Shown in pieces: positions 13,112 to 38,615 of a stretch of DNA of 64,000 nt. A model generated the notes under the pieces. The model did no database searches, was not told the DNA's origin, and saw only the letters and a list, made by a program, of their open reading frames with translations. The translations under genes were made by a program, and so were the position numbers. Every line of letters begins with the position of its first letter. Within the stretch, counting starts at the first letter, position 1. Location: the NCBI RefSeq assembly GCF_017696315.1, contig NZ_JAAORJ010000001.1, positions 331,526 through 395,525 on the forward strand, given 5' to 3'. This DNA is from Prochlorococcus marinus XMU1412. GTDB taxonomy: Bacteria; Cyanobacteriota; Cyanobacteriia; PCC-6307; Cyanobiaceae.

Positions 13112-13209
<98 letters not shown>

Positions 13210-23544: not shown

Positions 23545-23967
23545 ATGAGTAGTGAAGTAATTCATGAGGTGAGTGAGCAGAGATCAAGGAATATGTCTGC
23601 AATAAAGTCGAAGAATACAAAGCCAGAAATCACTGTAAGAAAACTTCTCCATTCAATGGGATATAGATTCAGATTACATAAAAAAGATTTACCGGGTTCT
23701 CCTGATATTGTTCTGCCAAAATATAAAACAGTAATTTTTGTGCATGGATGTTTTTGGCATAGACATCAAAATTGTAAGTATGCCTCTAATCCAAAAACTA
23801 GGAGAGAATTCTGGGAAAAAAAGTTTAAAGAAAATATTGAGAGAGATAAAAAAACTCAAGAAAAGTTAAAAAATTTAGGTTGGAAAACAAACATTGTTTG
23901 GGAATGTGAAGTTAAAAATAGAGAAATATTATTCCTTAAGTTAGAAGAGATTTTAAGGAAAAAATAA
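23545..23967 (+). CDS. vsr: Very short patch repair (Vsr) mismatch endonuclease
   Basis: This 140-residue protein has the Vsr core: RSRNMSAIKSKNTKPE near the start, SPDIVLP with the catalytic Asp54, VHGCFWHRHQNC (about 66-77), a second acidic site around E99-D101, and LGWKTNIVWECE. Vsr nicks T:G mismatches left when 5-methylcytosine deaminates. Its presence fits the C5 methyltransferase of the same locus. It faces the minus-strand operon, meeting the AIPR gene end with a 26-base gap. Confidence 0.95.
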   Translation: MSSEVIHEVSEQRSRNMSAIKSKNTKPEITVRKLLHSMGYRFRLHKKDLPGSPDIVLPKYKTVIFVHGCFWHRHQNCKYASNPKTRREFWEKKFKENIERDKKTQEKLKNLGWKTNIVWECEVKNREILFLKLEEILRKK

Positions 23968-23993
23968 TTTATTTAAAAAAAAATTCTTAAAGA

Positions 23994-26084
23994 TTAATTT
24001 TGAAATCCACTATCTTTAGCTCTTTCAATGATTTTTATCAATCTGGGATATTGCCAATCAACTGGTACAAAGCTTACCTGAATTGCTTTATATAATAAAT
24101 TCTGATCTCTAGGAGAAATTATTCTTTTTTGCATACAAAACTTGAGAACTTTTTTCCAGTAATCCGGACCTAAACTTACGATATAATTTTCAGTCTCAAG
24201 CTGGTTATCTAACTTTTGTTTTTTTGATGCTTCTTTAAGTAAACTTTTTTCTTCTTCTTTATTTAATAAAGTATTTTCAAAATCTTCACTTAAATTTATT
24301 TGTACTTTTTTAAATAATTCCCAGCAATCTAAACTCTTTGCATATTCTCCTGTATTAAGTGGAGCATTTTTGGGACGTTCTGCTTCAGTGAGATGTATTA
24401 CTGCTTCACGTCCCACCTCTAGAAGTGTATTTTCTAATTCTTGATTCAAGGATTGAGATTTCCAAATATTGTTGTAATTTATCGCTTTGTTTTTCCTCTT
24501 TATTGTGTGTAATAATTTTGCAATTCCATAGGCAACTATATTTCTTTTATAACCTTCTGCATACCAATCTGCTTTTTTTACTAATTCATCAAAACGTCTA
24601 AAAATGAGTACTTTGGCCATTGAATATTTAAAAAATGTTTCATCGAAAAATGTCTTATTACCTTCTTCACTCTCCTGTTTTTTAGTAAACGCTTGAGTAA
24701 ATTCTATATAGCATTTTTGTGATCCTTTACTTACTAAATCAGGCTTGCATAAAAATGTATTTATTACTATTGCTAATTGGTCTTTAGTTACCTTTTGATT
24801 CTTTGGATTTAATGCATCAAATTTTTTCTTTTCTCCCGTAGATTTTAACAATGCTTTTTCTTGATTGTATTGTCCTCTTGCTCTCTCATAAAACCATCTA
24901 GATTGTATTGTAGTGCCTGTTTTTTGAGGAGCTAAAATTTTTCTTGAATAATTCTCCATATCCACGTGGAATTTATTATTTGAGGTGAAGTCAATATGAT
25001 TTACTTTATTTTGGCTATTTGCATATTCGGAAATTTTTGGGACTATTTCTTCTGCTCGACTTTCGTTAGATATAACTGATAACTTCATTTGAATTTGAAT
25101 ATCTTTTAAGTTTTCTTCGAAACCTCTTTTGATAGCTTCATGAACCGATGCGGTAGTTTGCCCTCCATTAACTATTTGAAAATTAGTTATTGAAGATATA
25201 AAAAGACCTCCTTTTTCAGAAGTTGAATTAAAGTCTTTTTTTATATTTGATGCAGTCGCAGTAATGCCATTGTTATAACTAAAAAACATGTTTGGGTTTT
25301 GCTCAATGGTAGACCTTATTCCTTTATTAACTTTTCCCTTTGCCTGTAAAAAGACACGTACATTTTGTTCTAATAATCTGCTACCCCAAGCTTTAAAAAT
25401 TTTTGCAAGAGTATATCCTGGCATTATGCAAAGATAACTTTCAAAATCATTATTGGCACTGGATGCATTAAGAGCAGTTATAGAGCCGCCATATTCGGCT
25501 AGATTAATAATGATTTCCTCTTTTTCTTTACCTGAAATCATTAGGTCATAAAATCGATTGACATCCCAAGGTACAAATTCTGCATGGATACCATTTATTG
25601 GAATTGGATCAAAATCTCTATTTCTAATATTTAAAGATTTATTTGTAATAAAAACTATTTTTATTTTTTGTATTTGATCCCAAGTCGTAGAAATAAGATC
25701 TGACAATCCAAATTCAGTACTTGTCATATCCAATTCTTCTCTGAAATTTGGATCTAATGATTTGGAGATGAAATTAATTGCTTTTTTACACATTGAGTCA
25801 ATTTCAGCTCTGTTAATTGAAACTATTTCTTCTTGATTTGAAAAATCACAAACAATTAAACTTAAAGTTCCTTCATCATCAATTGGATTGCCACCATAAC
25901 CATCTATCTTTAATCCGGGTTTATCAAAAAAACATCTATCTGCAGTTGGAATAACTTCTGCTTTTATTAAGTCTTCAGAAAAAAAATAAAAGAATGCATC
26001 TTCTGTTAGTTCGTTGCTGCTTTCTGCTTCAACTAATATTTCATTTCTTAATTGAGAGTGAAAATCCTCTAAGGTTTGTTCCAT
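23994..26084 (-). CDS. AIPR (abortive phage infection) family protein
   Basis: This 696-residue protein shows the AIPR core: FFSYNNGITATAS (about 267-279) and FQIVNGGQTTAS (about 302-313), then KVNHIDF and SRWFYERARGQY (about 360-410). AIPR proteins are found in phage-resistance loci, including Lactococcus abortive infection systems. The biochemical activity is unproven, with nuclease-like use suspected. It is the last gene of the minus-strand defence operon; its ATG overlaps the stop of the DUF4420 gene by one base. Length is typical. Confidence 0.9.
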   Translation of the reverse strand: MEQTLEDFHSQLRNEILVEAESSNELTEDAFFYFFSEDLIKAEVIPTADRCFFDKPGLKIDGYGGNPIDDEGTLSLIVCDFSNQEEIVSINRAEIDSMCKKAINFISKSLDPNFREELDMTSTEFGLSDLISTTWDQIQKIKIVFITNKSLNIRNRDFDPIPINGIHAEFVPWDVNRFYDLMISGKEKEEIIINLAEYGGSITALNASSANNDFESYLCIMPGYTLAKIFKAWGSRLLEQNVRVFLQAKGKVNKGIRSTIEQNPNMFFSYNNGITATASNIKKDFNSTSEKGGLFISSITNFQIVNGGQTTASVHEAIKRGFEENLKDIQIQMKLSVISNESRAEEIVPKISEYANSQNKVNHIDFTSNNKFHVDMENYSRKILAPQKTGTTIQSRWFYERARGQYNQEKALLKSTGEKKKFDALNPKNQKVTKDQLAIVINTFLCKPDLVSKGSQKCYIEFTQAFTKKQESEEGNKTFFDETFFKYSMAKVLIFRRFDELVKKADWYAEGYKRNIVAYGIAKLLHTIKRKNKAINYNNIWKSQSLNQELENTLLEVGREAVIHLTEAERPKNAPLNTGEYAKSLDCWELFKKVQINLSEDFENTLLNKEEEKSLLKEASKKQKLDNQLETENYIVSLGPDYWKKVLKFCMQKRIISPRDQNLLYKAIQVSFVPVDWQYPRLIKIIERAKDSGFQN

Positions 26085-27064
26085 TAAATTGCCTTGAGAA
26101 CATCTTCTTTACTTATTTCAAAATCTTTTAGTTCATTCATATCCAAAGAGTAAGAAACATCATCAATTCCCGAAGATAATTTACTACCTACAATCTTTGG
26201 AAAATCATTTGTAACTTTATAGTAAACAATTTCTTTTATTTCCCATTTTGATTCTGTGTAATCATCCTCCCAATCGAATCCATACTCTGAAATTAAATTA
26301 TTAAATTGAGAAATTAAGTTTGGATTTCTTTTCTCAATTTCTTGCTCAACATATAAACACCATTCACTAAGATCTTTGCTTTCTTTAGATTCAGAAAAAT
26401 CAATACCGAATACTGCTAGAAATAAATTTGTTTCCGGATTTTCTTCAAGCTGATCTTCAGAGGAAATCTTAATTTTTGGTTTTGAAATAGTTCTTTTTGC
26501 TTTGATTTCTATTTGATTTTCTTTTAAATCGAAGTCTTTGCTTCCACCTAAAGGCCCTTGCCAACTTTCTAAAGCCATTTCAGGCGAAATATTTTTTTTA
26601 TTTATTAAGATCTCACTTAAAAAATAAAGTTCCCCAATTAAACCTTTTTGAGCAGAATTAGGTAACTTATTATCCCTTTTGCCTGCAAGTAAATTAACCC
26701 ATCTCCAACATCTTCTCAAAAGAACTGATAAAGTACCCTGCTCACTTTCTTCATTTACACTTGCATTAATAAGCAAGCAACATAATTCTGCGAATATTTC
26801 TAATTGTGTTATGTCTAAAAGAGTAATTTTCAGGAATTTTCTTTTAGAAATAATTTCATTAATTGAAAGACCTCTTAATTTAGGTAAATTTTTTTTGGGA
26901 GGAATAATAGTCTTATCTTCTTTGGTTTCAAATAATAAGCAATGATTCTTTTCTTCATCAATAGCCCAAAGGAATCGTCTTTGAATTTTTGGATCAGTAA
27001 AAACTGGAATAGCTTTTTTGCCAGGTGGTATTTTTCCCCAAGGGTTTTTTTCTTTAACTTCCAT
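26084..27064 (-). CDS. PD-(D/E)XK motif protein (DUF4420)
   Basis: This 326-residue protein has the restriction-endonuclease-like core at about residues 141-190: GLIGELYFL with Glu145, GGSKDFDL with Asp177/Asp179, then IEIKAKR with Glu186 and Lys188. In Z1/MORC restriction loci this family is the expected nuclease subunit. It overlaps the Z1 gene by eleven bases and abuts the AIPR gene, so all three are translated in step. Confidence 0.88.
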   Translation of the reverse strand: MEVKEKNPWGKIPPGKKAIPVFTDPKIQRRFLWAIDEEKNHCLLFETKEDKTIIPPKKNLPKLRGLSINEIISKRKFLKITLLDITQLEIFAELCCLLINASVNEESEQGTLSVLLRRCWRWVNLLAGKRDNKLPNSAQKGLIGELYFLSEILINKKNISPEMALESWQGPLGGSKDFDLKENQIEIKAKRTISKPKIKISSEDQLEENPETNLFLAVFGIDFSESKESKDLSEWCLYVEQEIEKRNPNLISQFNNLISEYGFDWEDDYTESKWEIKEIVYYKVTNDFPKIVGSKLSSGIDDVSYSLDMNELKDFEISKEDVLKAI

Positions 27065-29777
27065 CGCTTCCTTTTAGTTCAATAAGTTCATTTGATTCTA
27101 AATTATCGAAGAAATTCATTTGTCTCCAAGTTTTATTAACAAAATATTGTGTGGCTTCTTGATGTTTTTTAGTTGGAGGAAAACTTATTGACCAAGTTGC
27201 ATGTGCGAAATCATTATCTTCGAATGAATATCTCAAACTATCTGTATCTTTAAAAAGATCTATGAAATGTAAAACTAATAATGGCTTTCTTCCTTTAACT
27301 CTAAATATAGAATCAGGATAACCATCTTTATCAATTTCGTTTTTTAAGATCTTTAATCTGTTTTGGTCTCTCCATTTATTTATTTCATTCTCAACCGCTA
27401 ATTCACTTAACCCAACTTTTTCAATATATCTTCCAGATATCTTTCCATTAGCAAATTTAATCTTGTCATCTGATGCAATTATAAGTTGCCTTCCTGAAGT
27501 CCCAATTGAAATATCGCCGACTTTAATATTCCTAAATGCATATCGTGATTTTTTTCTAGGCGAGGTTACAAATACATCCCAACTACTTAATTCATCCGAT
27601 CTATCATTTATATATTTTATTATTGGTTCAATGGGATTAGTTAAAGGACTTCTAGACACAAATTCACATATAAAATCCTCAATATCATTAATACTTACTT
27701 CTTTAAATAAAAGTCCTGGTAAACCATGATGTTTTTCTACTGATATTTTTTGATTAAGAGATAAAGCATTTATTAATTTCTTTGAAAGATCAAAATTTCG
27801 TTTAAGGATATTTTTATCCTTTGGGAGAGTAGTTGTTTCAATAAATCTTGAAGACAGAGATACATTTATTGTCCTTTTCTGACCAACTCCCATTTTATTT
27901 AATGCAGTTATATGTAATGAGAGAGGATTATCCCTAACCATAAGTCCAAATTCTAATGGAGATTTTTTTAACCTTTCCATTTGTTTTACTTGTTCACCGA
28001 TATTATTCACCTCTTCAGCAATAAACTGGTAAAAATCTATAGCATTTAACGTCATCCAGATTTTACATAAATCCTCATAGCCATCTCTATAACCAAACCA
28101 TCTACCCATTTGTAGAAGAGTATCGCACATTTGGGTATTCCTTAAAATATATGTAATGGCTAACCCATGAACTGTGAATCCTCTTGATAAAGAGTGGCCT
28201 CCGATTACAATATAAGATTTTGCTTTTATTTTTGGATCGCCATCTTTATATTCAACAGGATCAGAAGACTCTTGATTTATAGATTTTATTTCTATTCTGA
28301 GATATGTTTTTTTTATTGCATTTTTAATATCTGGCCATTTCTCTTTGATGTTATTTGAATAATATTTGATAAAAACATCTTCAAAAATCTTTAATCTATT
28401 TTTTGCATCTTCATTTTCTAAAAATAAATTATGTCTTAATAAATTATCGAGCCTATCTTTTTCTCTTGTAATTTCCAATTTCAATTGCTCTTGAACAGAA
28501 GTAAATAATGAAACATTGATCATCATGGAGACATCTTTAGAGTCAAAAATATCCCTTAAATAAAAAATTGCATTTACTAAATAAAAAGCTATTATTGCTT
28601 CTTTTAAGCTTGTAGGGATTTTGGGCTCAAGAACCTTCTTATGCTTAAGAGGTATATAGTCTTCATTATCAGTTATTTTTTCAATAGTATTTGAATTATA
28701 TGGATCATCATCCAAGAATATTTTTTTAGGACCAAAATAATTTGTGGGAGGAGAAATTCTTGTTATGAAATTTTTTGGGAAAAGATCCCCGCCAATCATT
28801 TCATCCTTATCATCAGGATCTATAAAAATATTTGCAAAAGGTGTTGCTGTATATCCTATGTAAGAACTTTTGGTAAAGATATTTAATATTTCTCTTATAT
28901 CTTTATTTATTCTTGTTGGGTCATCATTATCGCTGCCATATTTTGTATTTATTGAAGCATTATCGGCTTCATCATCAATCAATATCATTGGTAAATTAAT
29001 TTTCCCATCTCTAAATAATTTTGAGCTACTAAAGTAACTTTTTACGTTGTTAAGAACGTTAGTATTTTTTTTAATTACTGCGACCACTGGTTTTTCATCT
29101 CTCGAAAATTTAAGTCTCTCAAGAGCAGGAGCATCAAAGTCAAATTTATCTGTAATAGAAACTGGTTCTTTTACATCATTAATAATGATCTTTGGCTTTA
29201 TAAATCCATCATTTATTCTTTTTTGTGTTTGTTCTCGAAGATTATTATCTCTTCCTGCAATAACAATAATTACTTTATAACCTAAGTCAGCTGCTTTGGT
29301 TATCAAGGCAATATAGTTTGCAGTCTTGCCACTTTGAACTGATCCGATAACTAATCCTTTTCTGTCCCATCCATTTTTTTTTGTTGGATCAGGGTCTCCG
29401 CATTTAGATATTATCCTGTCAGTGTCTAATCCTATTGTTGTTAGAACGTTATCAGAGAAACTTCCTTTTTTGGATAAGAGATTTTTGTAGTTAGACCAGT
29501 ATCCTTCATTTAAAACTTGCTTCCTCTCAGGAGTTAACCATTCTTCAAAGTTTTCAGAATCATCTTCAATCGTCGAACATATATCCATATCTATTCCTTC
29601 TATTTCCTGAATCTTTAAAATAACTTCTTGAATATCTTCTTCGTTTAAACTAGAAAAATTTGGTGCTTGAGAATTGAACCTTACGGAATGTTCGATTGCT
29701 TCTTCAGATGAATCTCCAGGGAAAGCAATGTGTAAATGGTTTTGCGATAGACGTTGTAGTAATTTTTTTAAATCCAC
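27054..29777 (-). CDS. Z1-domain superfamily-2-type ATPase
   Basis: This 907-residue protein has Walker A GSVQSGKT (145-152), Walker B IDDEAD (267-272), a motif around GYTATPFANIF (near 310), and the Z1 signature blocks GGHSLSRGFTVHGL and LQMGRWFGYRDGYEDL in the second half. Z1 ATPases pair with MORC-type ATPases, methylases and nucleases in bacterial restriction systems, and by analogy should move on DNA or remodel the complex. It starts 15 bases after the MORC gene stop. Confidence 0.94.
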   Translation of the reverse strand: MDLKKLLQRLSQNHLHIAFPGDSSEEAIEHSVRFNSQAPNFSSLNEEDIQEVILKIQEIEGIDMDICSTIEDDSENFEEWLTPERKQVLNEGYWSNYKNLLSKKGSFSDNVLTTIGLDTDRIISKCGDPDPTKKNGWDRKGLVIGSVQSGKTANYIALITKAADLGYKVIIVIAGRDNNLREQTQKRINDGFIKPKIIINDVKEPVSITDKFDFDAPALERLKFSRDEKPVVAVIKKNTNVLNNVKSYFSSSKLFRDGKINLPMILIDDEADNASINTKYGSDNDDPTRINKDIREILNIFTKSSYIGYTATPFANIFIDPDDKDEMIGGDLFPKNFITRISPPTNYFGPKKIFLDDDPYNSNTIEKITDNEDYIPLKHKKVLEPKIPTSLKEAIIAFYLVNAIFYLRDIFDSKDVSMMINVSLFTSVQEQLKLEITREKDRLDNLLRHNLFLENEDAKNRLKIFEDVFIKYYSNNIKEKWPDIKNAIKKTYLRIEIKSINQESSDPVEYKDGDPKIKAKSYIVIGGHSLSRGFTVHGLAITYILRNTQMCDTLLQMGRWFGYRDGYEDLCKIWMTLNAIDFYQFIAEEVNNIGEQVKQMERLKKSPLEFGLMVRDNPLSLHITALNKMGVGQKRTINVSLSSRFIETTTLPKDKNILKRNFDLSKKLINALSLNQKISVEKHHGLPGLLFKEVSINDIEDFICEFVSRSPLTNPIEPIIKYINDRSDELSSWDVFVTSPRKKSRYAFRNIKVGDISIGTSGRQLIIASDDKIKFANGKISGRYIEKVGLSELAVENEINKWRDQNRLKILKNEIDKDGYPDSIFRVKGRKPLLVLHFIDLFKDTDSLRYSFEDNDFAHATWSISFPPTKKHQEATQYFVNKTWRQMNFFDNLESNELIELKGSDGS

Positions 29778-29792
29778 TTTATTTAAAAATTC

Positions 29793-31208
29793 TCATAAAC
29801 TGTCTTTGATAGATTCCCAGTTTTCTCTAAATATATCAATACCTTTCAAAATATCATAACTATCTTCCACAGATAAACCTTGTTTAATGTAGTAATCAAT
29901 AATATTTTTTGCGTGGTCTAAAATTTCTTTAATAGTTAATTCTTCGGTTATGAGATTTTTTGGGTTTTCAGCATAATCAGAAGATATTAATTGCAGTGGA
30001 ATTCTTTTTTCTACTAAAGAAAATATTTTTTCTGCTTCATCAGCTAATTCCTCGCTTAAAGAATTTAGTAGAAACTTTATGGATGGATGATCTTTGCTGA
30101 TTTTGTAAATTATTTGTCTATCAGTAGAAACAAATCTTTCCCAAATTGGAGACTTTTGCTTGTTTATTAAAGCTTTAGCTCTTTTTGCAAATTTCTTTAT
30201 TGCAGGTCTTGAGAAGGCATGTATTAAGTCTCTTAATCTCCCACGAACTTGTTGAGGAGGAGTCGCCCTGCTTTTTTTAACATCCAATTGCCATTCTGCA
30301 TCTGAACTATTGTCAATATCGATGGATATTCTGCAAAGTTTTCTCATTTCTAATTTTCTTGCTAAACCAAACCATGTTGACTTACAAATTAATCTCCCAT
30401 TTCTATATAAATAAAATCCTTGATTTTCTAAATAACCTTCTTCTCCTCCATGATATTCCCATTCTTCAGAAGTGCAGTTAGTGTGATGAGGTAAAGCATA
30501 AGATATGACCTTGCATTTATTAGCTATGATTTCTGCTGGCTGAGTAGTTGACTTTTCTTTGAAAAATGGATCTGCTGAAATACAGATATTTCCGTTTACT
30601 GTAAAAATAATTTTATTGCCATAATCACCACTTATGTATCTATGAAAAACAAGACTTATATGTTTTATTAATTGATTGGTAACTGATTCAAAATATTCTT
30701 GAGCATTTATTTTATCTTTTTTTTCTAAAGTATCAATTTTTTCCCATCTTATTGTTGTACCTTTTTCTTTAAATGCATTTTTGCCATCAAGTTTTTCAAG
30801 ATCCATAAACCATTTATTTTCTTTCTCGATAAGATCTAAATCCCATATTGCCGCATATGTGTTTTCATTTTGTTTTGTTTTTACAATTAGTTTCTTCGCT
30901 TGTGAAAAGGAAGCTGTTTTAAGTCCTAATCCAAATCTTCCAAGATCTTCTTTATCCCTTTCATGAAGTGGATTTTTGCTTCCTAGTCTCATGGCTTCTT
31001 CAAGTTCCTCACTTGTCATACCAATGCCATTGTCCTTGATTTCAACGAAAGGTTCTTGATTATCCCAGCTACAAATAATGTCTATTTTTGTTGCTTTTGC
31101 CGAAATAGAATTATCGATTATATCTGCAACCGCATTATTTAAGGAATAACCTAAGCTCCTCATACTCATAATCAATGAGTTTGCATTAGGTGGTATTTCC
31201 TTCCTCAC
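29793..31208 (-). CDS. MORC/MutL-like GHKL ATPase
   Basis: This 471-residue protein has the GHKL nucleotide site: N-box DIIDNSI (29-35), DNGIGM (59-64) and GRFGLGLKTAS (90-100). An S5-like domain and a helical C-terminal region follow (around ARKLEMRKLCRISIDIDNSS and the Lys/Ala-rich helix near 335-345). This matches the bacterial MORC-type ATPases found beside Z1 proteins. ATP-driven dimer clamping on DNA is the known behaviour of this fold. The start at 31208 follows a 60-base gap from the small coiled-coil gene. Confidence 0.92.
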   Translation of the reverse strand: MRKEIPPNANSLIMSMRSLGYSLNNAVADIIDNSISAKATKIDIICSWDNQEPFVEIKDNGIGMTSEELEEAMRLGSKNPLHERDKEDLGRFGLGLKTASFSQAKKLIVKTKQNENTYAAIWDLDLIEKENKWFMDLEKLDGKNAFKEKGTTIRWEKIDTLEKKDKINAQEYFESVTNQLIKHISLVFHRYISGDYGNKIIFTVNGNICISADPFFKEKSTTQPAEIIANKCKVISYALPHHTNCTSEEWEYHGGEEGYLENQGFYLYRNGRLICKSTWFGLARKLEMRKLCRISIDIDNSSDAEWQLDVKKSRATPPQQVRGRLRDLIHAFSRPAIKKFAKRAKALINKQKSPIWERFVSTDRQIIYKISKDHPSIKFLLNSLSEELADEAEKIFSLVEKRIPLQLISSDYAENPKNLITEELTIKEILDHAKNIIDYYIKQGLSVEDSYDILKGIDIFRENWESIKDSL

Positions 31209-31268
31209 TTCGCAAATAAATAATATTTATTGAAAATAAACTTTTTCTCTATATCTTTCAACATGATG

Positions 31269-31445
31269 TTAAGGCTTCTGATTATTTAGAGATTTTGGAT
31301 ATTCTTTTTCATATTCCTTTTGTAGCTCATGATCAATTTGTTTTTTTAGAGATGTTAATTTTTTTGTTCTTTCGTCAAGTAATTCTTTATAACGCAAAGT
31401 CTCTTTTTTAAGTTCATTTAAAAGTGATTGAACTTTTTTTGTCAT
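31269..31445 (-). CDS. 58-residue coiled-coil protein coupled to the methyltransferase
   Basis: The minus-strand ATG at 31443-31445 overlaps the methyltransferase TGA (ATGA), and the frame runs 58 codons to TAA at 31269-31271. Nearly the whole product is a charged heptad helix (VQSLLNELKKE, then LLDERTKKLTSLKKQ) ending in SLNNQKP. It lies between the methylase and MORC genes. The overlap and position argue for a working subunit, perhaps an adapter for dimer or complex assembly. It resembles no named family I know. Confidence 0.72.
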   Translation of the reverse strand: MTKKVQSLLNELKKETLRYKELLDERTKKLTSLKKQIDHELQKEYEKEYPKSLNNQKP

Positions 31446-33544
31446 GAGGCAATTGATGAATCAGAAGCTGGAATTTTAGAAATTTGATCTTTTGAATCAA
31501 AATTTATTGCCGAATTTGCTTTGATTATTTTTTCAATTATTTCCTCTTTTTTCCCTTGTTTTGATAAGGCAAGTAATGAGCAATACCCTGTTCCTTCTCT
31601 ATCGGTTTCTAATAAGTGACCTATATGTATATCTCTATTCATATTGCTAAATTTTAAAATTTCATGATCGATATCCATTATCTGTGAAATAATTCTGCTA
31701 ATTCCTATGGATTGTTTTATCTCTGTGGTTAATCCAACTGTAGCTAAAGCACCTCTTACGGAATTCCTGGAAAACAAATCATATTCTTTTCTTGCGATTT
31801 CACTCCAGTCGATTTCATCTTTTGTAAGTTCTTCAGCAAGCAGTTCTAGTGAAGGGATATATTTCTCAAGACTAAAACTTTTTATTTTAATTTTTCTAGC
31901 TTTATCTTGTAGAAAAATCTCAGGAGTAGGCCAAAAGTTTTTTAATCTTTGATAGGTATCTTTCTTTCTTTTTTCAAGATCTTTATCTCCTAAGATCGCA
32001 GGTTTATTTTTTTCTTTAGTATTTTTTTTGAAAGTCTCTGGAAGTAAATTCCCAAGACATGCATTCCATGCCCTTATATTGCTTGGAATTATTTTTCTTC
32101 CTTCCCTTTTTTTTGTCCATATAAGTTCAACTTCTTTTTTATTTGATTCATACCAGTTAATTAGATTTTCTCTAAGTTTGGGAACTATATCAGGTTGGGT
32201 AAATTCTTTCTCATTTTTAATTGATTTCATTAAAGATTTACCGAGTTCAAAAGCAACAATGGGTGCAACGGCTTCTCCAATTTGGTGGAATCTATTTGAA
32301 GGCCCTCCATAAAAATTGAAACCATCGGGGAAAGATTGAACTCTTGCCGCTTCCCTAACTGATAGGGTTCTATTCTGGTGGGGATGAATATACCAATAAC
32401 CATCTTTTGACATGTGAGCAGTTATTGTCAGACATGGTTCGTTAGGTTTGAGGATATTGTATTTATCACCAAAACTTATTTTCTGACTTTGCTTTACTTG
32501 CTTACCTTCTCTGAAAGCTTTGCTCGTAACTGAATATCTTCTTTGCTCTTCTGATAATTGAGAATATTTGATCCCAGTTGATCGCATCAATTTAAATGTC
32601 TCAAGATCATCCTCTCTAACTTTTCTTATAAGGTGATCGTGAATCATCTCATCACCAATATCCAACCAATTCCTCATTAATTTCTGATAATCGTTTTTTG
32701 GTCCTTCATAGCTATATTTTTCATCCCACTTTTCATCCCATCCTCCTTTGAGTGGAGGGAGATCTGAAATCGCCTCGTTCAATGTGACTGCCTCTTCGAC
32801 AGAATCATATTTTGGCTTTGGCCATTTCATAGGAGCGCATTCATTTATTTTTGTTCCGGAAATAAATAATCTTGGCCTTAGTTGAGGCACTCCATATTGC
32901 CATGCATAAATCAATTTAGGATTTATTCGATAGCCAGCTTTCTCAGCTCTATTAATGATTGATCTATATATTTCCTGCTCACCTGTCTGCGCAATATCAG
33001 TAACATTCTCCATTAGAAAAGCTTTTGGTTTAACCTGCTCCACTATCGAAATAAATGATTCCCATAATTCTCTTCTATCTTCATTCAGTTCATGATGTTG
33101 AGCAGAAACTTCTTCGTTATGTTTTCTCCATTTGATATTTCGGGAGAAAGGCTGACATGGTGGTCCGCCTGCTATAAGTGATATTTCTCCACACTTATTA
33201 AGTTGTTCTGAAATTTCATTAATTACTTTTCTTTTGCTTAAATCGCATTCATATGAACATCCACCAAAGTGATGCCTGTGAGTCATTATTGAATCGTTTC
33301 TGATATCGCAGGCCAGTATTACATCAAAATTTGCACGATGCAGTCCAAGGCTTAAACCACCGGCACCTGAAAAAAGGTCAACAGCAAAATAAGGTACTTT
33401 TTTTATTGATCGAACTTTTGCTGCATATTCAGGAAGTTCATCAAAACTGCATGAATCTACATGTGCTTCAAGTTCTGATGCAGGCCCTCTTACAGGACTT
33501 AATCTATGTGGATCACTTTTCCCTACTGCATTTTTATGAATCAT
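31442..33544 (-). CDS. DNA C5-cytosine methyltransferase with long C-terminal extension
   Basis: This 700-residue protein has motif I DLFSGAGGLSLGL (56-68), motif IV GGPPCQPFS (126-134) with catalytic Cys130, motif VI ENV (179-181), motif VIII QLRPRLF (221-227), and late motifs TITAHMSKDGYWYIHP, REAARVQSFPDGF and IGEAVAP near 375-430. It methylates cytosine at C5 and marks self DNA. About 50 residues precede motif I and about 260 follow motif X, well beyond a minimal enzyme of 330-400 residues. The extension (with AWNACLGNLLPETF and NSVRGALATVGLTTE) is unrecognised and could contact the other subunits. It overlaps genes on both sides. Confidence 0.95.
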   Translation of the reverse strand: MIHKNAVGKSDPHRLSPVRGPASELEAHVDSCSFDELPEYAAKVRSIKKVPYFAVDLFSGAGGLSLGLHRANFDVILACDIRNDSIMTHRHHFGGCSYECDLSKRKVINEISEQLNKCGEISLIAGGPPCQPFSRNIKWRKHNEEVSAQHHELNEDRRELWESFISIVEQVKPKAFLMENVTDIAQTGEQEIYRSIINRAEKAGYRINPKLIYAWQYGVPQLRPRLFISGTKINECAPMKWPKPKYDSVEEAVTLNEAISDLPPLKGGWDEKWDEKYSYEGPKNDYQKLMRNWLDIGDEMIHDHLIRKVREDDLETFKLMRSTGIKYSQLSEEQRRYSVTSKAFREGKQVKQSQKISFGDKYNILKPNEPCLTITAHMSKDGYWYIHPHQNRTLSVREAARVQSFPDGFNFYGGPSNRFHQIGEAVAPIVAFELGKSLMKSIKNEKEFTQPDIVPKLRENLINWYESNKKEVELIWTKKREGRKIIPSNIRAWNACLGNLLPETFKKNTKEKNKPAILGDKDLEKRKKDTYQRLKNFWPTPEIFLQDKARKIKIKSFSLEKYIPSLELLAEELTKDEIDWSEIARKEYDLFSRNSVRGALATVGLTTEIKQSIGISRIISQIMDIDHEILKFSNMNRDIHIGHLLETDREGTGYCSLLALSKQGKKEEIIEKIIKANSAINFDSKDQISKIPASDSSIAS

Positions 33545-34254
33545 GCGACCTCTTCACTCTGAGTATCAATTAACTGCTGGAGTTGCTCTTCACTTAAAAG
33601 ATCAAGACATATTGAACCTCCAAGGGAATTTAGTTTTCTTATCGCAATTCTTACTTTGCTGTCGGGTAATTCAACTAGCTTTTCAGTAAGTATTCTATTT
33701 ATCTTGGGAATCAGGCCAAATTCTCGATCACTCAACCCAAGATGAAGTTCCTGACTGGTAAATAATTTTTTGACCAGGGAATAGTCAGAATGATCATTCT
33801 CCATCATCCTGTCGGCGGCAAAAAAAAGTCTCGAGAAAGTATTTCTGCCATGTCCATTTATTGATGATGTCCCTAGAAATCTTAGTGATGGAACATGTTT
33901 CTTTCCTGTTCCAACAGTAAATCCATCTTCCGGATCAATCGGAATATTACCTCTCCATCTAAGCCACGGAATATTTGGATATCTTATTACGCATAGCCAG
34001 TGCCACATCCTCATATCAGTAAGAATATGAGAAGGCAGAGATTTGAATGTTGTATGAACGCACTCAACTAATCTTGCATCCAGACTCGCACCAGTAACTT
34101 TTTCAAGAATAAGTTGATCTATAAGTGCTGAGAGATTTGTAAGGTCAACCTTGCATTTCACTTCCTCTATACTCACAATATCTGGATTCCTCAAAGCAGA
34201 AATAAGTCCATTACTGATTAGAGGTGCTTTTAATCTGAATAGTTTTTCGCTCAT
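33541..34254 (-). CDS. Unrecognised operon protein (possibly DUF6339-like)
   Basis: This 237-residue soluble protein has MRMWHWLCVIRYPNIPWLRW (about 81-100) and NGHGRNTFSRLFFAADRMM (about 133-151). The spacing 'Arg-x-Trp ... Arg-Trp ... Arg-Asn-x-x-x-Arg-Leu' recalls DUF6339, which I remember as an uncharacterised family near methyltransferases; I have not been able to verify this. Its end overlaps the methyltransferase start (ATGA) and its start overlaps the upstream gene (ATGA). Base composition is higher in G+C than the genes downstream of the methylase. Confidence 0.7.
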   Translation of the reverse strand: MSEKLFRLKAPLISNGLISALRNPDIVSIEEVKCKVDLTNLSALIDQLILEKVTGASLDARLVECVHTTFKSLPSHILTDMRMWHWLCVIRYPNIPWLRWRGNIPIDPEDGFTVGTGKKHVPSLRFLGTSSINGHGRNTFSRLFFAADRMMENDHSDYSLVKKLFTSQELHLGLSDREFGLIPKINRILTEKLVELPDSKVRIAIRKLNSLGGSICLDLLSEEQLQQLIDTQSEEVA

Positions 34255-35282
34255 GCAACCTCCTCTTTTTCAAGGTTAGTTGGAATCTCCGATTCAAAAC
34301 TGCACCCTCTCGCCATTATTTCCGCCAATTCCAGAATCTTCGTTTCCTGCTGAATTATGGAACTCATTTTAAGAATAAATTTCTGAAAAGACTCAGGTGA
34401 CCTAAGTTCATTGGCCAGAGCAATAACCGCTTCATGTGGAGAGATATTTGTTTCTAGAAGATTTGTCGAAAATAGAGATAGAGTCTGAAGTTGTGATGGC
34501 GGCAATTGCTCAACAATTTCTTCACTGCTCAGGTCATTGTTTGTATTCAACATATTCTGGATGGAGTTCATCGAAATAGAAAGAATCATGGTCCAAACAG
34601 TGGAACAAATTGAGGTGAAGATGATATCTCTCTGAAGGGAATTGATATCTTTCCTCAAGGCCTTACTCATCAGAAGTTTTTTCAATGATGCAGTCACATC
34701 TGCATTCATTTCAATTACTGGAGGTTCACTTGGGATTAATCTCCATAACTGATCTTTACTTTCAGGGGGAAAGGATTGCCACTTTATGTTGAAGATGGAG
34801 TCATTATTAGCTTCGGTGGTAGCAAAACGAATGGTATGAATCAGACTTCTTCCAATTATCTGACCCATTTCTGTGGCATAGCCGCTCCTTGATTTTTCTC
34901 CGGCAAATTGTTCTGTTCTTACAAGAAGTGCTTCTGCCCTGACTTCTTCTCCATTTAAAAAAGGTATATAGGAAGTCTCTGAAAAAAAGAATCCACCACC
35001 ACCATCCTCTAAATCAATTATTTCTCTTCTACCTGTTGATCTGCTTATAAGACGGCATATGAATTTAACAGGAGGATTTTCCCTTTCTGAGGGATGAAGA
35101 GTTTCTTCCCATTCAAAAGGTGCAGTTAGCAGTATCTCAAGTTTTGTCTTTTCAAGTTTGCCATTGAACTTGAAAGTAATTCCATTGCTTACTTCCTGAA
35201 TTACCTCTTCAGAAATGCTGTCTGGAGCTGTTATTCGAAATGCTCCATCAAGATCTATTGTTTTCCAGGGGACAAAATGCAT
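34251..35282 (-). CDS. Unrecognised operon protein, 343 residues
   Basis: The N-terminal half looks beta rich (HFVPWKTIDLDGAFRITAP, then FKFNGKLEKTKLEILLTAP). A polar linker with a Gly run (LEDGGGGFFFSE) follows, then a mainly helical C-terminal half with STVWTMILSISMNSIQNML. No catalytic motif is visible. It lies two bases after the GHKL ATPase gene stop and overlaps the next gene by four bases, so all should be produced in fixed ratio. It is plausibly a structural subunit of the ATPase. Confidence 0.7.
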   Translation of the reverse strand: MHFVPWKTIDLDGAFRITAPDSISEEVIQEVSNGITFKFNGKLEKTKLEILLTAPFEWEETLHPSERENPPVKFICRLISRSTGRREIIDLEDGGGGFFFSETSYIPFLNGEEVRAEALLVRTEQFAGEKSRSGYATEMGQIIGRSLIHTIRFATTEANNDSIFNIKWQSFPPESKDQLWRLIPSEPPVIEMNADVTASLKKLLMSKALRKDINSLQRDIIFTSICSTVWTMILSISMNSIQNMLNTNNDLSSEEIVEQLPPSQLQTLSLFSTNLLETNISPHEAVIALANELRSPESFQKFILKMSSIIQQETKILELAEIMARGCSFESEIPTNLEKEEVA

Positions 35283-35284
35283 GA

Positions 35285-37249
35285 TTAACCTACCTTCCTG
35301 AAGCCTGCAATTTCAGGGTTGACTCCGGATGGAGGTTTTACTATGCACTCAAAAGGAACTGATGAAAATTGGTTTTCGGCAGAGAATACAAATCTCCTTG
35401 AATCAGAATCGTCATATGAAATATATTGTTCACTCCCCATAATTCTCATATCACTTATTCCCCACATTTCTCCCTGGCCACTGTCTGCAATGCTCTGGAA
35501 AGATAAATGTACTTTTGCAGTTCTGATTGATTCACCTGATCGTACTAATTCGCCGGCTATTCTCCATCCATTGGCTTTTTTAATGAAGGAGCATTGATCT
35601 CTATCTATAACAACTTCAAGTGCGGAACTTTTTGTCTTGGATAGACTTTTCTTTTCTTTAATTCCTCTGCCAAGATTAATCATTCTTTTAAGCATTTCTG
35701 GTCCTTCATCAGGAGGTGCAATAAATGAAGTCAGTAAGTTCTGAATGAGGATCTGCCTTAGTTCATATCTGATTCCTCTAAGTCTGTTAGCATGACCTCT
35801 CCATGTATAACTTTCTCTCAGTCTTCTTGTTGTAGGCAGCCAGTCATCATGAGTCACTGGTTCACCTGCACGGAAATATTCTTCAGCGAATGCGTTATTT
35901 TCCCTGCTCAACTCTGTCTTGTCAGATTCGGCAATCTCATTCAATGATGTACCTACAAATGCAGCTGCACAATAGGAACCTCCATCACTTAACTTTGTAC
36001 CTTCGGCATAATCAATAACCATTCCAGAACCCCTTATAAGTGCAATAGTTGATCGGCATGGCAGACATTCCTCTTTGGAAGGGACTCTTGTAACTCCAAG
36101 TCTGACAGTACTTTTAAGCTCATCATGAAGAAGTTCAGGATTGTCTGAGGGTTCCACTCGTCTAGGTATGGGAAACTCAACATCAATTGAGGAACTGTCG
36201 CCCGGGAATAATGATTTTGCACCTTCAAAAGGTTCTACTCTTCCACACTCAACGAATGGAGACCATATTTCATCAGCACGCGCTTCAGATATATATTCAG
36301 CTGATTTCCCCTCTTCCCGAAATACTCTTGCTTTGAAATCAAGTCTTTCCCAGCTGATTGCAGGCCAGAACCATTTTGATGCAGCTTTTGTGAAATCTCT
36401 GCAGAGTTCCTCTGGATCTCTTATTCCTGATGAACCGGTATCATCACGATCAGGTTCATGAAAAGTTGGAATGAGGATAGTTGTTCCGCACTCAGTTTCA
36501 TTGTCACGATTGAGAAGAATTTTTTCTGCATCTCTTTCTTTCATCCAGGTGGATTCTGCAATAGGAATTCCATCTTTTTCACTTTCAGATCCCATGTAGG
36601 CACCATCAAGCCATGATTTTCCGTCCATTTCATGAGCGGGAATTTCGCTTCTTCCAAAAATTCTTAATTTCTTTCTGCCTTCAATTCTTGAAGAGAAAAG
36701 AACAGTGAATATTCTTGAATGCATCCAGCTGACTGCCTTTCCCAGCCCAAAGCTTCCTCCTAATCCAGACTCTTTACCGGTTGAAAAATTCTGCACACAT
36801 AGCTTACGGAAATTTCCTTTCTCGTCCCAGTCATCACCTGTCAGACCATCAGTTCCGTAATCACTGATTTTCAGACAGACAAGATCAGATGATTTCATGG
36901 ATTCAAGTCCGGCCTTCAGGGTGAGGGCAGTTCCACTTGAACCTTTAACTGATGAAAGGTGAGGGATAAGAGTTTCACTGTTGATTAATTTAAGAAATTT
37001 CTCTTTTTTCTCTCCCTTGAGCACAATCAGATCAAAAAATATTTTCACCTTTTTATCCCTTCTCTGATCGAGACTGTTCTGACAGATTTCTCTGACAAGA
37101 GTTTCCAGCAGTGATCTTTTTCTCTGTGATCCACCTGCTTCAAAAATTTCACTTGCGGCATTACCACCACTGGACCTACCCTGTCCGAGCGATGGTGTCC
37201 CAATCCATTTCAGTTGTGTCTTTGCTGTTTTCAAATCCCCTTCAGACAC
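35285..37249 (-). CDS. Second GHKL-type ATPase, first gene of the defence operon
   Basis: This 654-residue protein has a GHKL nucleotide site: N-box VREICQNSLDQ (52-62), KISDYGTDGLTG (127-138) in place of DxGxG, and GGSFGLGKAVSW (164-175). It is longer and clearly different from the MORC-like protein at 29793. The C-terminal half is of unknown fold with VHLSFQSIADSGQGEMWG near 585-600. It is not a histidine kinase, since no H-box or DHp helix is seen. It probably provides an ATP-driven clamp for the two following proteins. The upstream 164 bases must hold the operon promoter. Confidence 0.82.
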   Translation of the reverse strand: MSEGDLKTAKTQLKWIGTPSLGQGRSSGGNAASEIFEAGGSQRKRSLLETLVREICQNSLDQRRDKKVKIFFDLIVLKGEKKEKFLKLINSETLIPHLSSVKGSSGTALTLKAGLESMKSSDLVCLKISDYGTDGLTGDDWDEKGNFRKLCVQNFSTGKESGLGGSFGLGKAVSWMHSRIFTVLFSSRIEGRKKLRIFGRSEIPAHEMDGKSWLDGAYMGSESEKDGIPIAESTWMKERDAEKILLNRDNETECGTTILIPTFHEPDRDDTGSSGIRDPEELCRDFTKAASKWFWPAISWERLDFKARVFREEGKSAEYISEARADEIWSPFVECGRVEPFEGAKSLFPGDSSSIDVEFPIPRRVEPSDNPELLHDELKSTVRLGVTRVPSKEECLPCRSTIALIRGSGMVIDYAEGTKLSDGGSYCAAAFVGTSLNEIAESDKTELSRENNAFAEEYFRAGEPVTHDDWLPTTRRLRESYTWRGHANRLRGIRYELRQILIQNLLTSFIAPPDEGPEMLKRMINLGRGIKEKKSLSKTKSSALEVVIDRDQCSFIKKANGWRIAGELVRSGESIRTAKVHLSFQSIADSGQGEMWGISDMRIMGSEQYISYDDSDSRRFVFSAENQFSSVPFECIVKPPSGVNPEIAGFRKVG

Positions 37250-37413: not shown

Positions 37414-38379
37414 TTATATGGAAAGTTGAAAGTGGCTGTAGCGCATCAGCATTTTTATATCTCTGTGACCACTGCAAGCACTTATCTCCAGTGCATTCAT
37501 TCCGCATCTCCACATTCTGCTTATGGCTATATGTCTTAGATCATGAAATCTGAGAGTTTCAAGTCCGGCTTTTTTTCTTGCCTTATCAAATCCATGCCTC
37601 GCGCTACCTTTTGAAAGTTCTATAACTTTCCCATCTCTTCTCTGTGATTCCTCAAGAATCTTCTGCGCCTTTTCAGGGAAAGGAACAAGCCTCATTCCGG
37701 ATGAATTATCTATGGCGGCACATTTCTTTCTACATATATAGAGTAATTTTTTCTTCAGATCTATATTTCTCCAGGTCAGGCTCAAAAGTTCGGAACGGCG
37801 GAAGCCAGTCGTCAGGGCAAGTTTTGTGAGTCTCAGATGATTTTTGTTGGACATCTGAGACAGTTCAAACAGGAGTCTTTTTTCATCTTCATTCGTTAAA
37901 AAAGGAGCTCTTGCATCTCCTGTCCCTCTCACTCTCAGATTCCTTGCTGGGTTGTCTTTGATTTCAGCTCCTCTTTCATCTCGCACCCAGTCGATTAATA
38001 CTCTCAATATCCTCAGTTCCCGCATAACTGTATTTGGTTTCACCTTCAGTAATCGTTCATCTCGCCAGACTGCGAAATGTTTTATCTGCAGATCCTTCAG
38101 AGGAATATCTCCAAGCCAGCTTTCTGCCGTCACCCTGAGAGGATATTTTTCATTTTCCGCACTGCGGTGCAGAAGCAGCGGACCATTTATATAGTCATTG
38201 ATTGCCTCTCCCAGGGTGATAGGGATATTCGGAAAAACTTTTTTTGTCCTCTCTTCGACGGCATCTGCCCATGATTCAGCCAGATCTCTGGAAAGGAAAT
38301 TTCTGGACCTCGGACCGACATAATTCTTCCTTCTGATAAGGACCTGCCAGCCGCTGCCGCTTCTTCTGATTGTTGCCAT
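37414..38379 (-). CDS. Tyrosine recombinase (integrase) of the element
   Basis: I start it at the ATG at 38377-38379 (321 residues, MATIRRSGSGWQVLIRRKNY), the usual N-terminus of phage-type integrases. A GTG at 38406 is an alternative. The catalytic set is complete: Arg194 in TTGFRRSELLSLTW, His279 and Arg282 in FHDLRHIA, His305 in SGHRD, Tyr314 in MRYSH. The core-binding domain spans about 55-155. Only seven residues follow the Tyr, short for the family, so the C-terminal tail is trimmed. Composition is the richest in G+C of the window. It lies beside the right att repeat and reads away from it. Confidence 0.95.
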   Translation of the reverse strand: MATIRRSGSGWQVLIRRKNYVGPRSRNFLSRDLAESWADAVEERTKKVFPNIPITLGEAINDYINGPLLLHRSAENEKYPLRVTAESWLGDIPLKDLQIKHFAVWRDERLLKVKPNTVMRELRILRVLIDWVRDERGAEIKDNPARNLRVRGTGDARAPFLTNEDEKRLLFELSQMSNKNHLRLTKLALTTGFRRSELLSLTWRNIDLKKKLLYICRKKCAAIDNSSGMRLVPFPEKAQKILEESQRRDGKVIELSKGSARHGFDKARKKAGLETLRFHDLRHIAISRMWRCGMNALEISACSGHRDIKMLMRYSHFQLSI

Positions 38380-38433
38380 TTCGGTGTCATCGTTTGTGTG
38401 ATGCACCTCCAGATATCTGCCTTTAAAACAGAA

Positions 38434-38517: not shown

Positions 38518-38601
<84 letters not shown>

Positions 38602-38615
<14 letters not shown>

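What the first reader, a model, noticed from the sequence alone, without database searches (positions are those of the whole stretch)
23545..37249. Composite defence operon with two different GHKL ATPases around one C5 methyltransferase
Seen: nine minus-strand genes with four-base overlaps or gaps of 2-60 bases code for GHKL ATPase, two unknowns, C5 methylase, coiled coil, MORC-like GHKL ATPase, Z1 ATPase, DUF4420 nuclease and AIPR, faced by vsr. Known: MORC-Z1-nuclease loci with methylase and Vsr were described from comparative genomics as restriction-modification-type systems. The extra ATPase plus two partner proteins fused upstream by overlap is the part I do not recognise. Two ATP-driven clamps in one operon suggests separate sensing and effector steps.
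Basis: partly seen in the sequence, partly recalled or inferred. Interest (0 to 1): 0.8.

Follow-up and report, generated by a model that had tools for sequence, protein, structure and literature searches.

The report
Two-module cytosine-methylation restriction locus
A Prochlorococcus genomic island carries one cytosine methyltransferase shared by two different ATP-powered defence modules, one kept constant and one exchanged between strains, and a similar pairing around one methyltransferase recurs in other bacteria and in archaea.

Summary
In detail: eight well-supported minus-strand genes faced by vsr form one tight operon; the ninth, a 58-aa coiled coil, is not conserved in the relatives compared. 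The downstream half (MORC-like GHKL, Z1, DUF4420, AIPR) is diverged MZA-like. The upstream triad is catalogued: it matches PADLOC candidate PDC-M33, and its GHKL carries the ExxxH that Iyer et al. (2008) gave for paraMORC2. Two library searches found no paper naming PDC-M33 or DUF6339.

New here: (1) in 13 Prochlorococcus loci M33ABC plus methyltransferase is near-constant, while the next segment is exchanged (MzaBCDE; Z1-DUF4420-second triad; second triad; nothing). (2) M33C follows M33A in 84 of 84 copies with room. Outside picocyanobacteria 30 C5 methyltransferases lie within 2 kb of the triad, 2 at 4-10 kb. (3) In 22 same-locus pairs of a reduced tree, the partner is never the nearest relative. 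(4) 17 of 20 haloarchaeal loci carry an HhH glycosylase; none shows Vsr. Triads also occur without a nearby C5 methyltransferase (16 of 47).

Best reading: two GHKL-driven restriction modules share one methyl mark. No phage data exist.

The parts
35285..37249 (-). M33A: GHKL ATPase, 654 aa, PDC-M33A / paraMORC2-like (N box 53-61, G1 box 130-138, G2 box 164-171, conserved R406 and E463xxxH467)
34251..35282 (-). M33B: 343 aa; predicted Ig-like beta-sandwich (about 1-158) plus helical C-terminal part (198-332); no family match in the libraries above weak level
   Evidence: the homologue in a type-c second triad matches PDC-M33B
33541..34254 (-). M33C: 237 aa, DUF6339 / PDC-M33C; predicted mostly helical, no confident PDB match
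31442..33544 (-). C5 cytosine DNA methyltransferase, 700 aa, with C-terminal extension; last about 38 aa vary with the neighbouring cassette
31269..31445 (-). 58-aa coiled-coil ORF overlapping the methyltransferase stop; not conserved in the relatives compared, doubtful gene
29793..31208 (-). MzaB-like MORC-type GHKL ATPase, 471 aa
27054..29777 (-). MzaC-like SF2 ATPase with Z1 domain, 907 aa
26084..27064 (-). MzaD-like DUF4420 putative PD-(D/E)XK protein, 326 aa
23994..26084 (-). MzaE-like AIPR protein, 696 aa
23545..23967 (+). Vsr T:G mismatch endonuclease, 140 aa, convergent with the operon
37414..38406 (-). tyrosine recombinase next to the operon; a whole copy is beside the triad in 5 of 12 relatives, a fragment in 1
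38519..38591 (-). tRNA-Thr(GGT) at the integrase end; identical copy at 13113-13185, within a perfect 98-bp repeat

Best explanation
A two-layer restriction locus built on one cytosine-5 mark, in an integrase/tRNA-Thr island. The C5 methyltransferase marks host sites; Vsr repairs the T:G mismatches that arise when 5-methylcytosine deaminates. Two separate GHKL-driven modules act on DNA without the mark. M33ABC (paraMORC2-type ATPase with two accessory subunits) is the constant module, linked to this methyltransferase in the picocyanobacterial loci that have enough sequence in view. The second module is exchangeable; here it is MzaB-E, in which the MORC-like clamp, the Z1 motor and the DUF4420 nuclease would cut and AIPR adds a further effector. 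Shown: gene order, intact motifs, linkage of triad and C5 methyltransferase, exchange of the second module, pairing of unrelated triads. Inferred: that both modules restrict phage DNA, that the methyl mark protects from both, and that GHKL dimers clamp DNA.
For: C5 methyltransferases cluster at the triad: 60 loci outside picocyanobacteria give 30 within 2 kb (223 kb covered), 4 at 2-4 kb, 1 at 4-6, 0 at 6-8, 1 at 8-10 kb. 5mC-damage repair comes with it: Vsr within 6.5 kb in 15 of 73 genome loci, all bacterial; an HhH-GPD glycosylase in 17 of 20 haloarchaeal loci, which show no Vsr. Of the 41 genome loci with triad plus C5 methyltransferase within 6 kb, my hand assignment finds a second restriction-type module in 31: second triad 17, MZA/Z1 without second triad 4, type II or HNH nuclease 6, GmrSD 2, another GHKL 1, halo508 family only 1. 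Same-locus triads are of different lineages: 22 pairs in 18 loci of a redundancy-reduced tree, 0 with the partner as nearest relative. Triad and second cassette assort independently in 13 Prochlorococcus loci: 7 label changes against a shuffled mean of 6.8; well-supported branches alone force at least 3, 2 and 3 changes for types b, c and a. Loci with triad, methyltransferase and vsr only (G146) and with triad plus methyltransferase (Synechococcus elongatus plasmid) are expected if the triad works alone.
Against: No nuclease fold was recognised in M33B or M33C; M33A's C-terminal third was not modelled. 16 of 47 well-flanked loci have no C5 methyltransferase within 6 kb, so a methyl mark in cis is not always needed. 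10 of the 41 triad-methyltransferase loci show no recognised second module (two of them, L074 and L079, end soon after or within the methyltransferase). Neighbours of bacterial triad-methyltransferase loci also match other defence families, such as type IV restriction, PbeA, TmtA and HmaB models, so some 'second modules' may be ordinary defence-island clustering. No expression, methylome or phage data. Independent assortment could come from homologous recombination without functional coupling.
Confidence: 0.45

Rival explanations
1. Sensor-executor split: M33ABC (with the methyltransferase) reads the unmethylated site and switches on a specificity-free executor, which is whichever cassette follows; the methyltransferase's C-terminal tail may dock it.
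For: Methyltransferase residues 1-650 are 60-100% identical to the window's in 50-aa blocks (mostly over 90) across exchanged cassettes, while the last 38 residues go with the cassette (27 and 24 of 38 identical in the two other type-a loci, 6-13 in the ten others). MZA cassettes only 41-45% alike in Z1 sit behind near-identical triads.
Against: MZA also occurs with a different methyltransferase family and no triad (G005, G046: methyltransferase reads, both partial, 91% identical to each other, Z1 33%). The tail could simply be where recombination broke. Triads without methyltransferase and the type-d locus lack a visible executor.
Confidence: 0.25
2. Linkage without function: triad plus methyltransferase is one defence system and the second cassette an unrelated one, brought together by island recombination and defence-island clustering.
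For: Vsr lies beyond the exchanged segment in 11 of 12 relatives, a setting for cassette exchange between homologous arms; island with a 98-bp tRNA repeat; mixed defence neighbours elsewhere.
Against: Second triads or other restriction-type modules recur in 31 of 41 triad-methyltransferase loci (hand assignment). The triad-methyltransferase pair itself stays together where no integrase was found beside it (6 of 12 relatives) and in seven phyla without a match to this integrase, so it is not merely carried by that flank.
Confidence: 0.18
3. M33ABC is a repair or tolerance partner (MutL-like) that handles deaminated 5mC or self-damage with Vsr or the HhH glycosylase.
For: GHKL/MutL kinship of the family; co-occurrence with Vsr or HhH-GPD; MutL acts with Vsr in E. 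coli as described in Iyer 2008.
Against: Triads occur without Vsr, HhH or methyltransferase in view; two triads per methyltransferase are hard to explain this way.
Confidence: 0.1

Closest known systems
PDC-M33 (PADLOC candidate, models A, B, C)
   Same: M33A matches PDC-M33A (1.1e-28), M33C matches PDC-M33C (5.1e-12) and DUF6339; the type-c second triad of G006 matches A, B and C models strongly.
   Different: The window's B is below detection; this branch adjoins a C5 methyltransferase and MZA-like genes. No paper naming PDC-M33 or DUF6339 in the library searched (openly licensed PubMed Central papers).
paraMORC2 GHKL family (Iyer, Abhiman and Aravind 2008, PMC2292703; abstract and sections 4-6 read)
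   Same: GHKL plus S5 architecture, conserved ExxxH motif, mainly cyanobacteria and Gram-positives; beside methylases, Vsr and nucleases. Here E463 and H467 have weighted frequency 1.00 in 110 sequences.
   Different: The sections read do not mention obligate B and C partners, pairing of two lineages, or cassette exchange; the figures were not available.
MZA (mzaABCDE, Gao et al. 2020; paper not held, known here only as cited in PMC9523054)
   Same: Window genes match MzaB-E models in order B-C-D-E.
   Different: All four are far below the NCBIfam cut-offs (311/850, 418/1500, 115/420, 313/1050 bits); no MzaA match seen; methyltransferase, Vsr and M33ABC added.
Putative system types I and II of PMC9523054 (2022; section 11 and passages read)
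   Same: Core Z1 + PD-(D/E)XK + cytosine methyltransferase; type II adds AIPR and is associated with MORC, like the window's 3' half; type I adds three genes not named in the text, which may be an M33 triad (type b here; inference).
   Different: The text read does not describe both together in one operon; supplements not seen.
VcSduA, a GHKL-Shedu protein (PMC12137116, passages read)
   Same: A paraMORC3-type GHKL with shown anti-phage activity needing ATPase and nuclease residues.
   Different: Nuclease fused in one protein; no methyltransferase mentioned in the passages.
HEF_HK / Response_reg_2 pairs (PMC8011034, passages read)
   Same: paraMORC-related GHKL genes beside C5 methylases and Vsr.
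   Different: Different domains and a two-gene partnership.

Membership tests
PDC-M33 | A-B-C triad in order | tested here: met
   Order in the window; A and C match the PADLOC models; with my own profiles B and C follow A in 77 of 84 copies, C in 84 of 84.
PDC-M33 | M33B recognised by the PADLOC model | tested here: inconclusive
   No match for the window protein at E 0.1; it aligns with B of triads outside Prochlorococcus at 17-27%; the type-c copy of G006 matches at 2.4e-28.
paraMORC2 | intact GHKL motifs | tested here: met
   E54, N58, D130, G135, G164, G165, G168, G170 at weighted frequency 0.90 or more.
paraMORC2 | ExxxH in the C-terminal part of the S5 domain | tested here: met
   E463 and H467 at 1.00 in 110 sequences; that the segment is the S5 domain is inferred from position, not modelled.
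MZA (mzaABCDE) | MzaB, C, D, E homologues in one operon | tested here: met
MZA (mzaABCDE) | equivalog-level score of the components | tested here: not met
   311 of 850, 418 of 1500, 115 of 420, 313 of 1050 bits.
MZA (mzaABCDE) | MzaA (sigma factor) | tested here: inconclusive
   No MzaA hit for the ten main proteins nor for the 58-aa ORF, but I did not check that the libraries hold an MzaA model.
C5 restriction-modification with Vsr | C5 methyltransferase and vsr together | tested here: met
C5 restriction-modification with Vsr | methylation-sensitive cleavage | not testable with these tools
   Needs biochemistry or phage plating.

The most novel reading that the evidence does not exclude
A plug-in restriction platform: site specificity and self-marking sit in the constant methyltransferase (with M33ABC), and interchangeable, specificity-free executors (MZA, Z1-DUF4420-M33', a second M33) are attached through the type-specific methyltransferase tail, so that a strain changes its weapon without changing its methylome.
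Probability: 0.2. Interest if true: 0.85.

Novelty: new variant of a known kind. Interest (0 to 1): 0.6.

Why it matters
In ordinary restriction-modification the nuclease and methyltransferase must share a specificity and so travel together. Here near-identical methyltransferases sit with very different effector cassettes, which poses a direct question: where is the specificity? The locus also links a catalogued but, as far as I could search, unstudied candidate system (PDC-M33) to the paraMORC2 ATPases predicted in 2008, shows that its genes keep together across bacteria and archaea, and gives small natural variants (triad plus methyltransferase with or without vsr) in which function can be tested. 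It concerns Prochlorococcus, a dominant marine phototroph.

Tried and rejected
Rejected: that the triad is a wholly unknown trio (matches PDC-M33). Rejected for the pairs tested: that paired triads are recent tandem duplicates. Not supported: the 58-aa coiled coil as a conserved gene. Led nowhere: PDB sequence search with the M33A, B and C profiles (nothing for A, only matches at E 0.13 or worse for B and 0.36 for C) and with M33A alone; Foldseek with the B and C models gave nothing below E 0.001. For B the structural second look gave mostly Ig-like and other beta-sandwich domains (best Z 8.6, rmsd 3.8, 110 aligned), for C nothing above Z 4.9; this does not exclude a nuclease or a known fold. 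Viral contigs: one relative only. The 508-aa haloarchaeal protein has no Pfam match or PDB match; its GIY-YIG-like look is by eye and from recall.

Limits: the genome scan used one peptide pattern and kept the best 80 of 84 relatives, 73 loci. Gene calls for neighbourhood scans in high-GC genomes were home-made (GC3-weighted ORFs). Family scans of alignments gave tallies (best 25 families), not a row per protein. ORFs left out: 98 of the 128 printed went into, with one ORF of L135 and none of L134 and L137; L129, L138 and L139 were not sampled; 84 of 100 went into; 64 of 65 into. The partner classes of the 41 loci were put together by hand; a third GmrSD_N match was not assigned to a locus. 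The M33A tree is a quick one of 101 rows; near-identical and short copies were dropped, so several same-locus pairs were not tested. In one search, three of 20 genomes (G039, G132, G264) had only weak partial hits and were left out of the count of 17.

Full report
WHAT IS THERE. The window lies in a genome of 1.73 Mb in 5 contigs with GC near 0.3 over most of the window; loci with 94-99% identical M33A bear the name Prochlorococcus. The operon runs on the minus strand from 37249 to 23994 and faces vsr. Gene junctions are overlaps of 1-11 bases or gaps of 2-60. Pfam, NCBIfam and PADLOC identify DUF6339/PDC-M33C, a C5 methyltransferase, MzaB-, MzaC-, MzaD- and MzaE-like proteins and Vsr; the first gene matches only PDC-M33A in PADLOC. 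GC falls from about 0.41 in the first genes to about 0.30 in the MZA-like half, a first sign of two origins. The 58-aa coiled-coil ORF is present but not kept in G112, G216 or G004, which share the MZA-like half.

THE TRIAD. M33A has intact GHKL boxes and, at weighted frequency 1.00 in 110 sequences, R406, E463 and H467. ExxxH in the S5 domain is the mark that Iyer et al. [quoted passage not shown] M33B is predicted (mean pLDDT 89, pTM 0.65) as a beta-sandwich followed by helices, M33C (pLDDT 92, pTM 0.90) as mostly helical; neither gave a convincing relative in the PDB. Searches of the paper library for PDC-M33 and DUF6339 returned none.

CONSTANT AND EXCHANGED HALVES. M33A was found in 20 of 266 Prochlorococcus genomes at E 1e-6, 17 of them true (three weak partial hits left out); Z1 in 24 of 266. 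I fetched 20 regions. In 13 loci (the window and 12 relatives) the triad and methyltransferase residues 1 to about 650 are near-constant, while the segment that follows differs: type a MzaBCDE (window, G112, G004), type b Z1-DUF4420 plus a second triad on the opposite strand (G021, G001, G136, G018, G182; its B is only positional), type c a second triad without Z1 (G029, G006, G252, G022), type d nothing (G146). A further type-a genome, G216, is split over contigs, with its MzaB read in two pieces, and was not used in the trees; G261, with only part of the methyltransferase on its contig, and the broken-up G074 and G229 were not typed. Vsr is in view in 11 of the 12 relatives; G136 runs to a contig end first. 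On the triad tree the types need 7 changes against a shuffled mean of 6.8; only 4 of 10 inner branches are well supported, but these alone force at least 3, 2 and 3 changes for b, c and a: cassette and triad assort independently. The last 38 methyltransferase residues follow the cassette. G005 and G046 have an integrase of the same kind (only a part in G046) and an MZA cassette with a different C5 methyltransferase and no triad; there too the methyltransferase reads (both partial) are 91% identical while Z1 is 33%. MZA therefore does not depend on M33ABC.

BEYOND PROCHLOROCOCCUS. The scan with the M33A profile gave 73 distinct loci (84 relatives, best 80 kept) in picocyanobacteria, Actinomycetota, Myxococcota, haloarchaea and a few others, and one viral contig. 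Of 84 M33A copies with at least 2 kb of room downstream, C follows in 84 and B was found by profile in 77. C5 methyltransferases lie within 2 kb of the triad far more often than further out in the same loci (30 in 223 kb against 2 in about 456 kb at 4-10 kb). Of 47 loci with 5 kb before and 7 kb after, 31 have a C5 methyltransferase within 6 kb and 16 do not; by record titles and tree labels those 16 are 9 Myxococcota and 7 Actinomycetota (the phylum of L139 is recalled from its genus name); one of them, L138, has a methyltransferase, Z1 and a second M33A further off, and L137 a NaeI relative. In the 14 sampled loci without a methyltransferase no Pfam family matched more than 3 of 98 neighbour ORFs. 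Some bacterial triad-methyltransferase loci carry Vsr and a type II or HNH nuclease (NaeI, NgoMIV, EcoRII, MvaI/BcnI, HNH) or Z1 genes; haloarchaeal ones carry an HhH-GPD glycosylase in 17 of 20 loci and no Vsr. PADLOC models of other defence systems also match among the neighbours, so ordinary defence-island clustering plays some part. Type-a order (triad, methyltransferase, MzaB-C-D-E) also occurs in Synechococcus lacustris (L082). M33B was found in 19 of 399 genomes drawn from the order, 6 of 44 genera; DUF6339 in 9 of 386 drawn from the phylum and in 0 of 14 control genomes.

TWO GHKL MODULES PER METHYLTRANSFERASE. Of the 41 loci with triad and C5 methyltransferase, 17 have a second triad in view. 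In the M33A tree none of 22 same-locus pairs (18 loci) are nearest relatives; at least four rows from other loci are closer to each member than its partner. The tree is a quick one with several long branches and without near-identical copies, so deep positions are unsure, but the counts do not rest on deep order.

HOW IT MAY WORK. Best supported: one methyl mark shared by two GHKL-driven modules, each able to act on unmarked DNA; the MZA-like one has a putative nuclease (DUF4420) and a Z1 motor, the M33 one has no recognised nuclease and may use an unrecognised site or host factors. The sensor-executor reading explains exchanged executors behind a constant methyltransferase, but is weakened by MZA without the triad. 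Iyer et al. proposed that these GHKL proteins loop DNA between recognition and cleavage sites; either reading can use that. No step of function has been shown by experiment for this locus in anything I read.

MOBILITY. A whole copy of the integrase lies beside M33A in 5 of the 12 relatives and a fragment in one; in six none was found. The tRNA-Thr next to it is repeated perfectly over 98 bp at 13112-13209, but neither that repeat nor the left edge near vsr was proved to be the element's end; of 10 relatives' regions searched, 6 show tRNA-Thr near the integrase end, one of them with a second copy, and 4 show no tRNA. It resembles the tRNA-linked islands called tycheposons (recalled; papers with that term seen only in search listings).

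CHECK.

Noticed in passing
window 13112-13209 and 38518-38615: Perfect 98-bp direct repeat holding an entire tRNA-Thr(GGT) and 24 bases of 5' flank; possible trace of island integration or tRNA duplication.
   Followed up: partly
L104, L106, L107, L110, L117, L119, L123 and ten other haloarchaeal loci: An HhH-GPD DNA glycosylase gene is present in haloarchaeal triad loci (17 of 20), where no Vsr was found; a likely archaeal stand-in for repair of deaminated 5mC.
   Followed up: partly
L107:17445-18962, L097:5945-7528 and ten other haloarchaeal loci: Conserved protein of about 508 aa in 12 of 20 haloarchaeal loci with a GIY-YIG-like stretch (seen by eye, no Pfam match); candidate nuclease of that system.
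   Followed up: partly
L071 (Arthrobacter agilis plasmid NZ_CP117870.1): dcm, vsr, an EcoRII-like type II nuclease, M33ABC and a Shedu nuclease side by side.
   Followed up: no
L086:13806-15578: A second, different 591-aa HATPase_c_3 protein between triad and vsr-methyltransferase in Knoellia; relatives in haloarchaeal loci L107 and L068.
   Followed up: no
L145 (IMG/VR contig, 21.8 kb): A complete A-B-C triad on a contig classed as viral; the only viral hit.
   Followed up: no
L064:6918-7814 and L063:15206-16000: C5 methyltransferase reads in MZA loci without the triad lack the N-terminal part (L063 is cut by the fetched region; L064 may be split or have another start).
   Followed up: no
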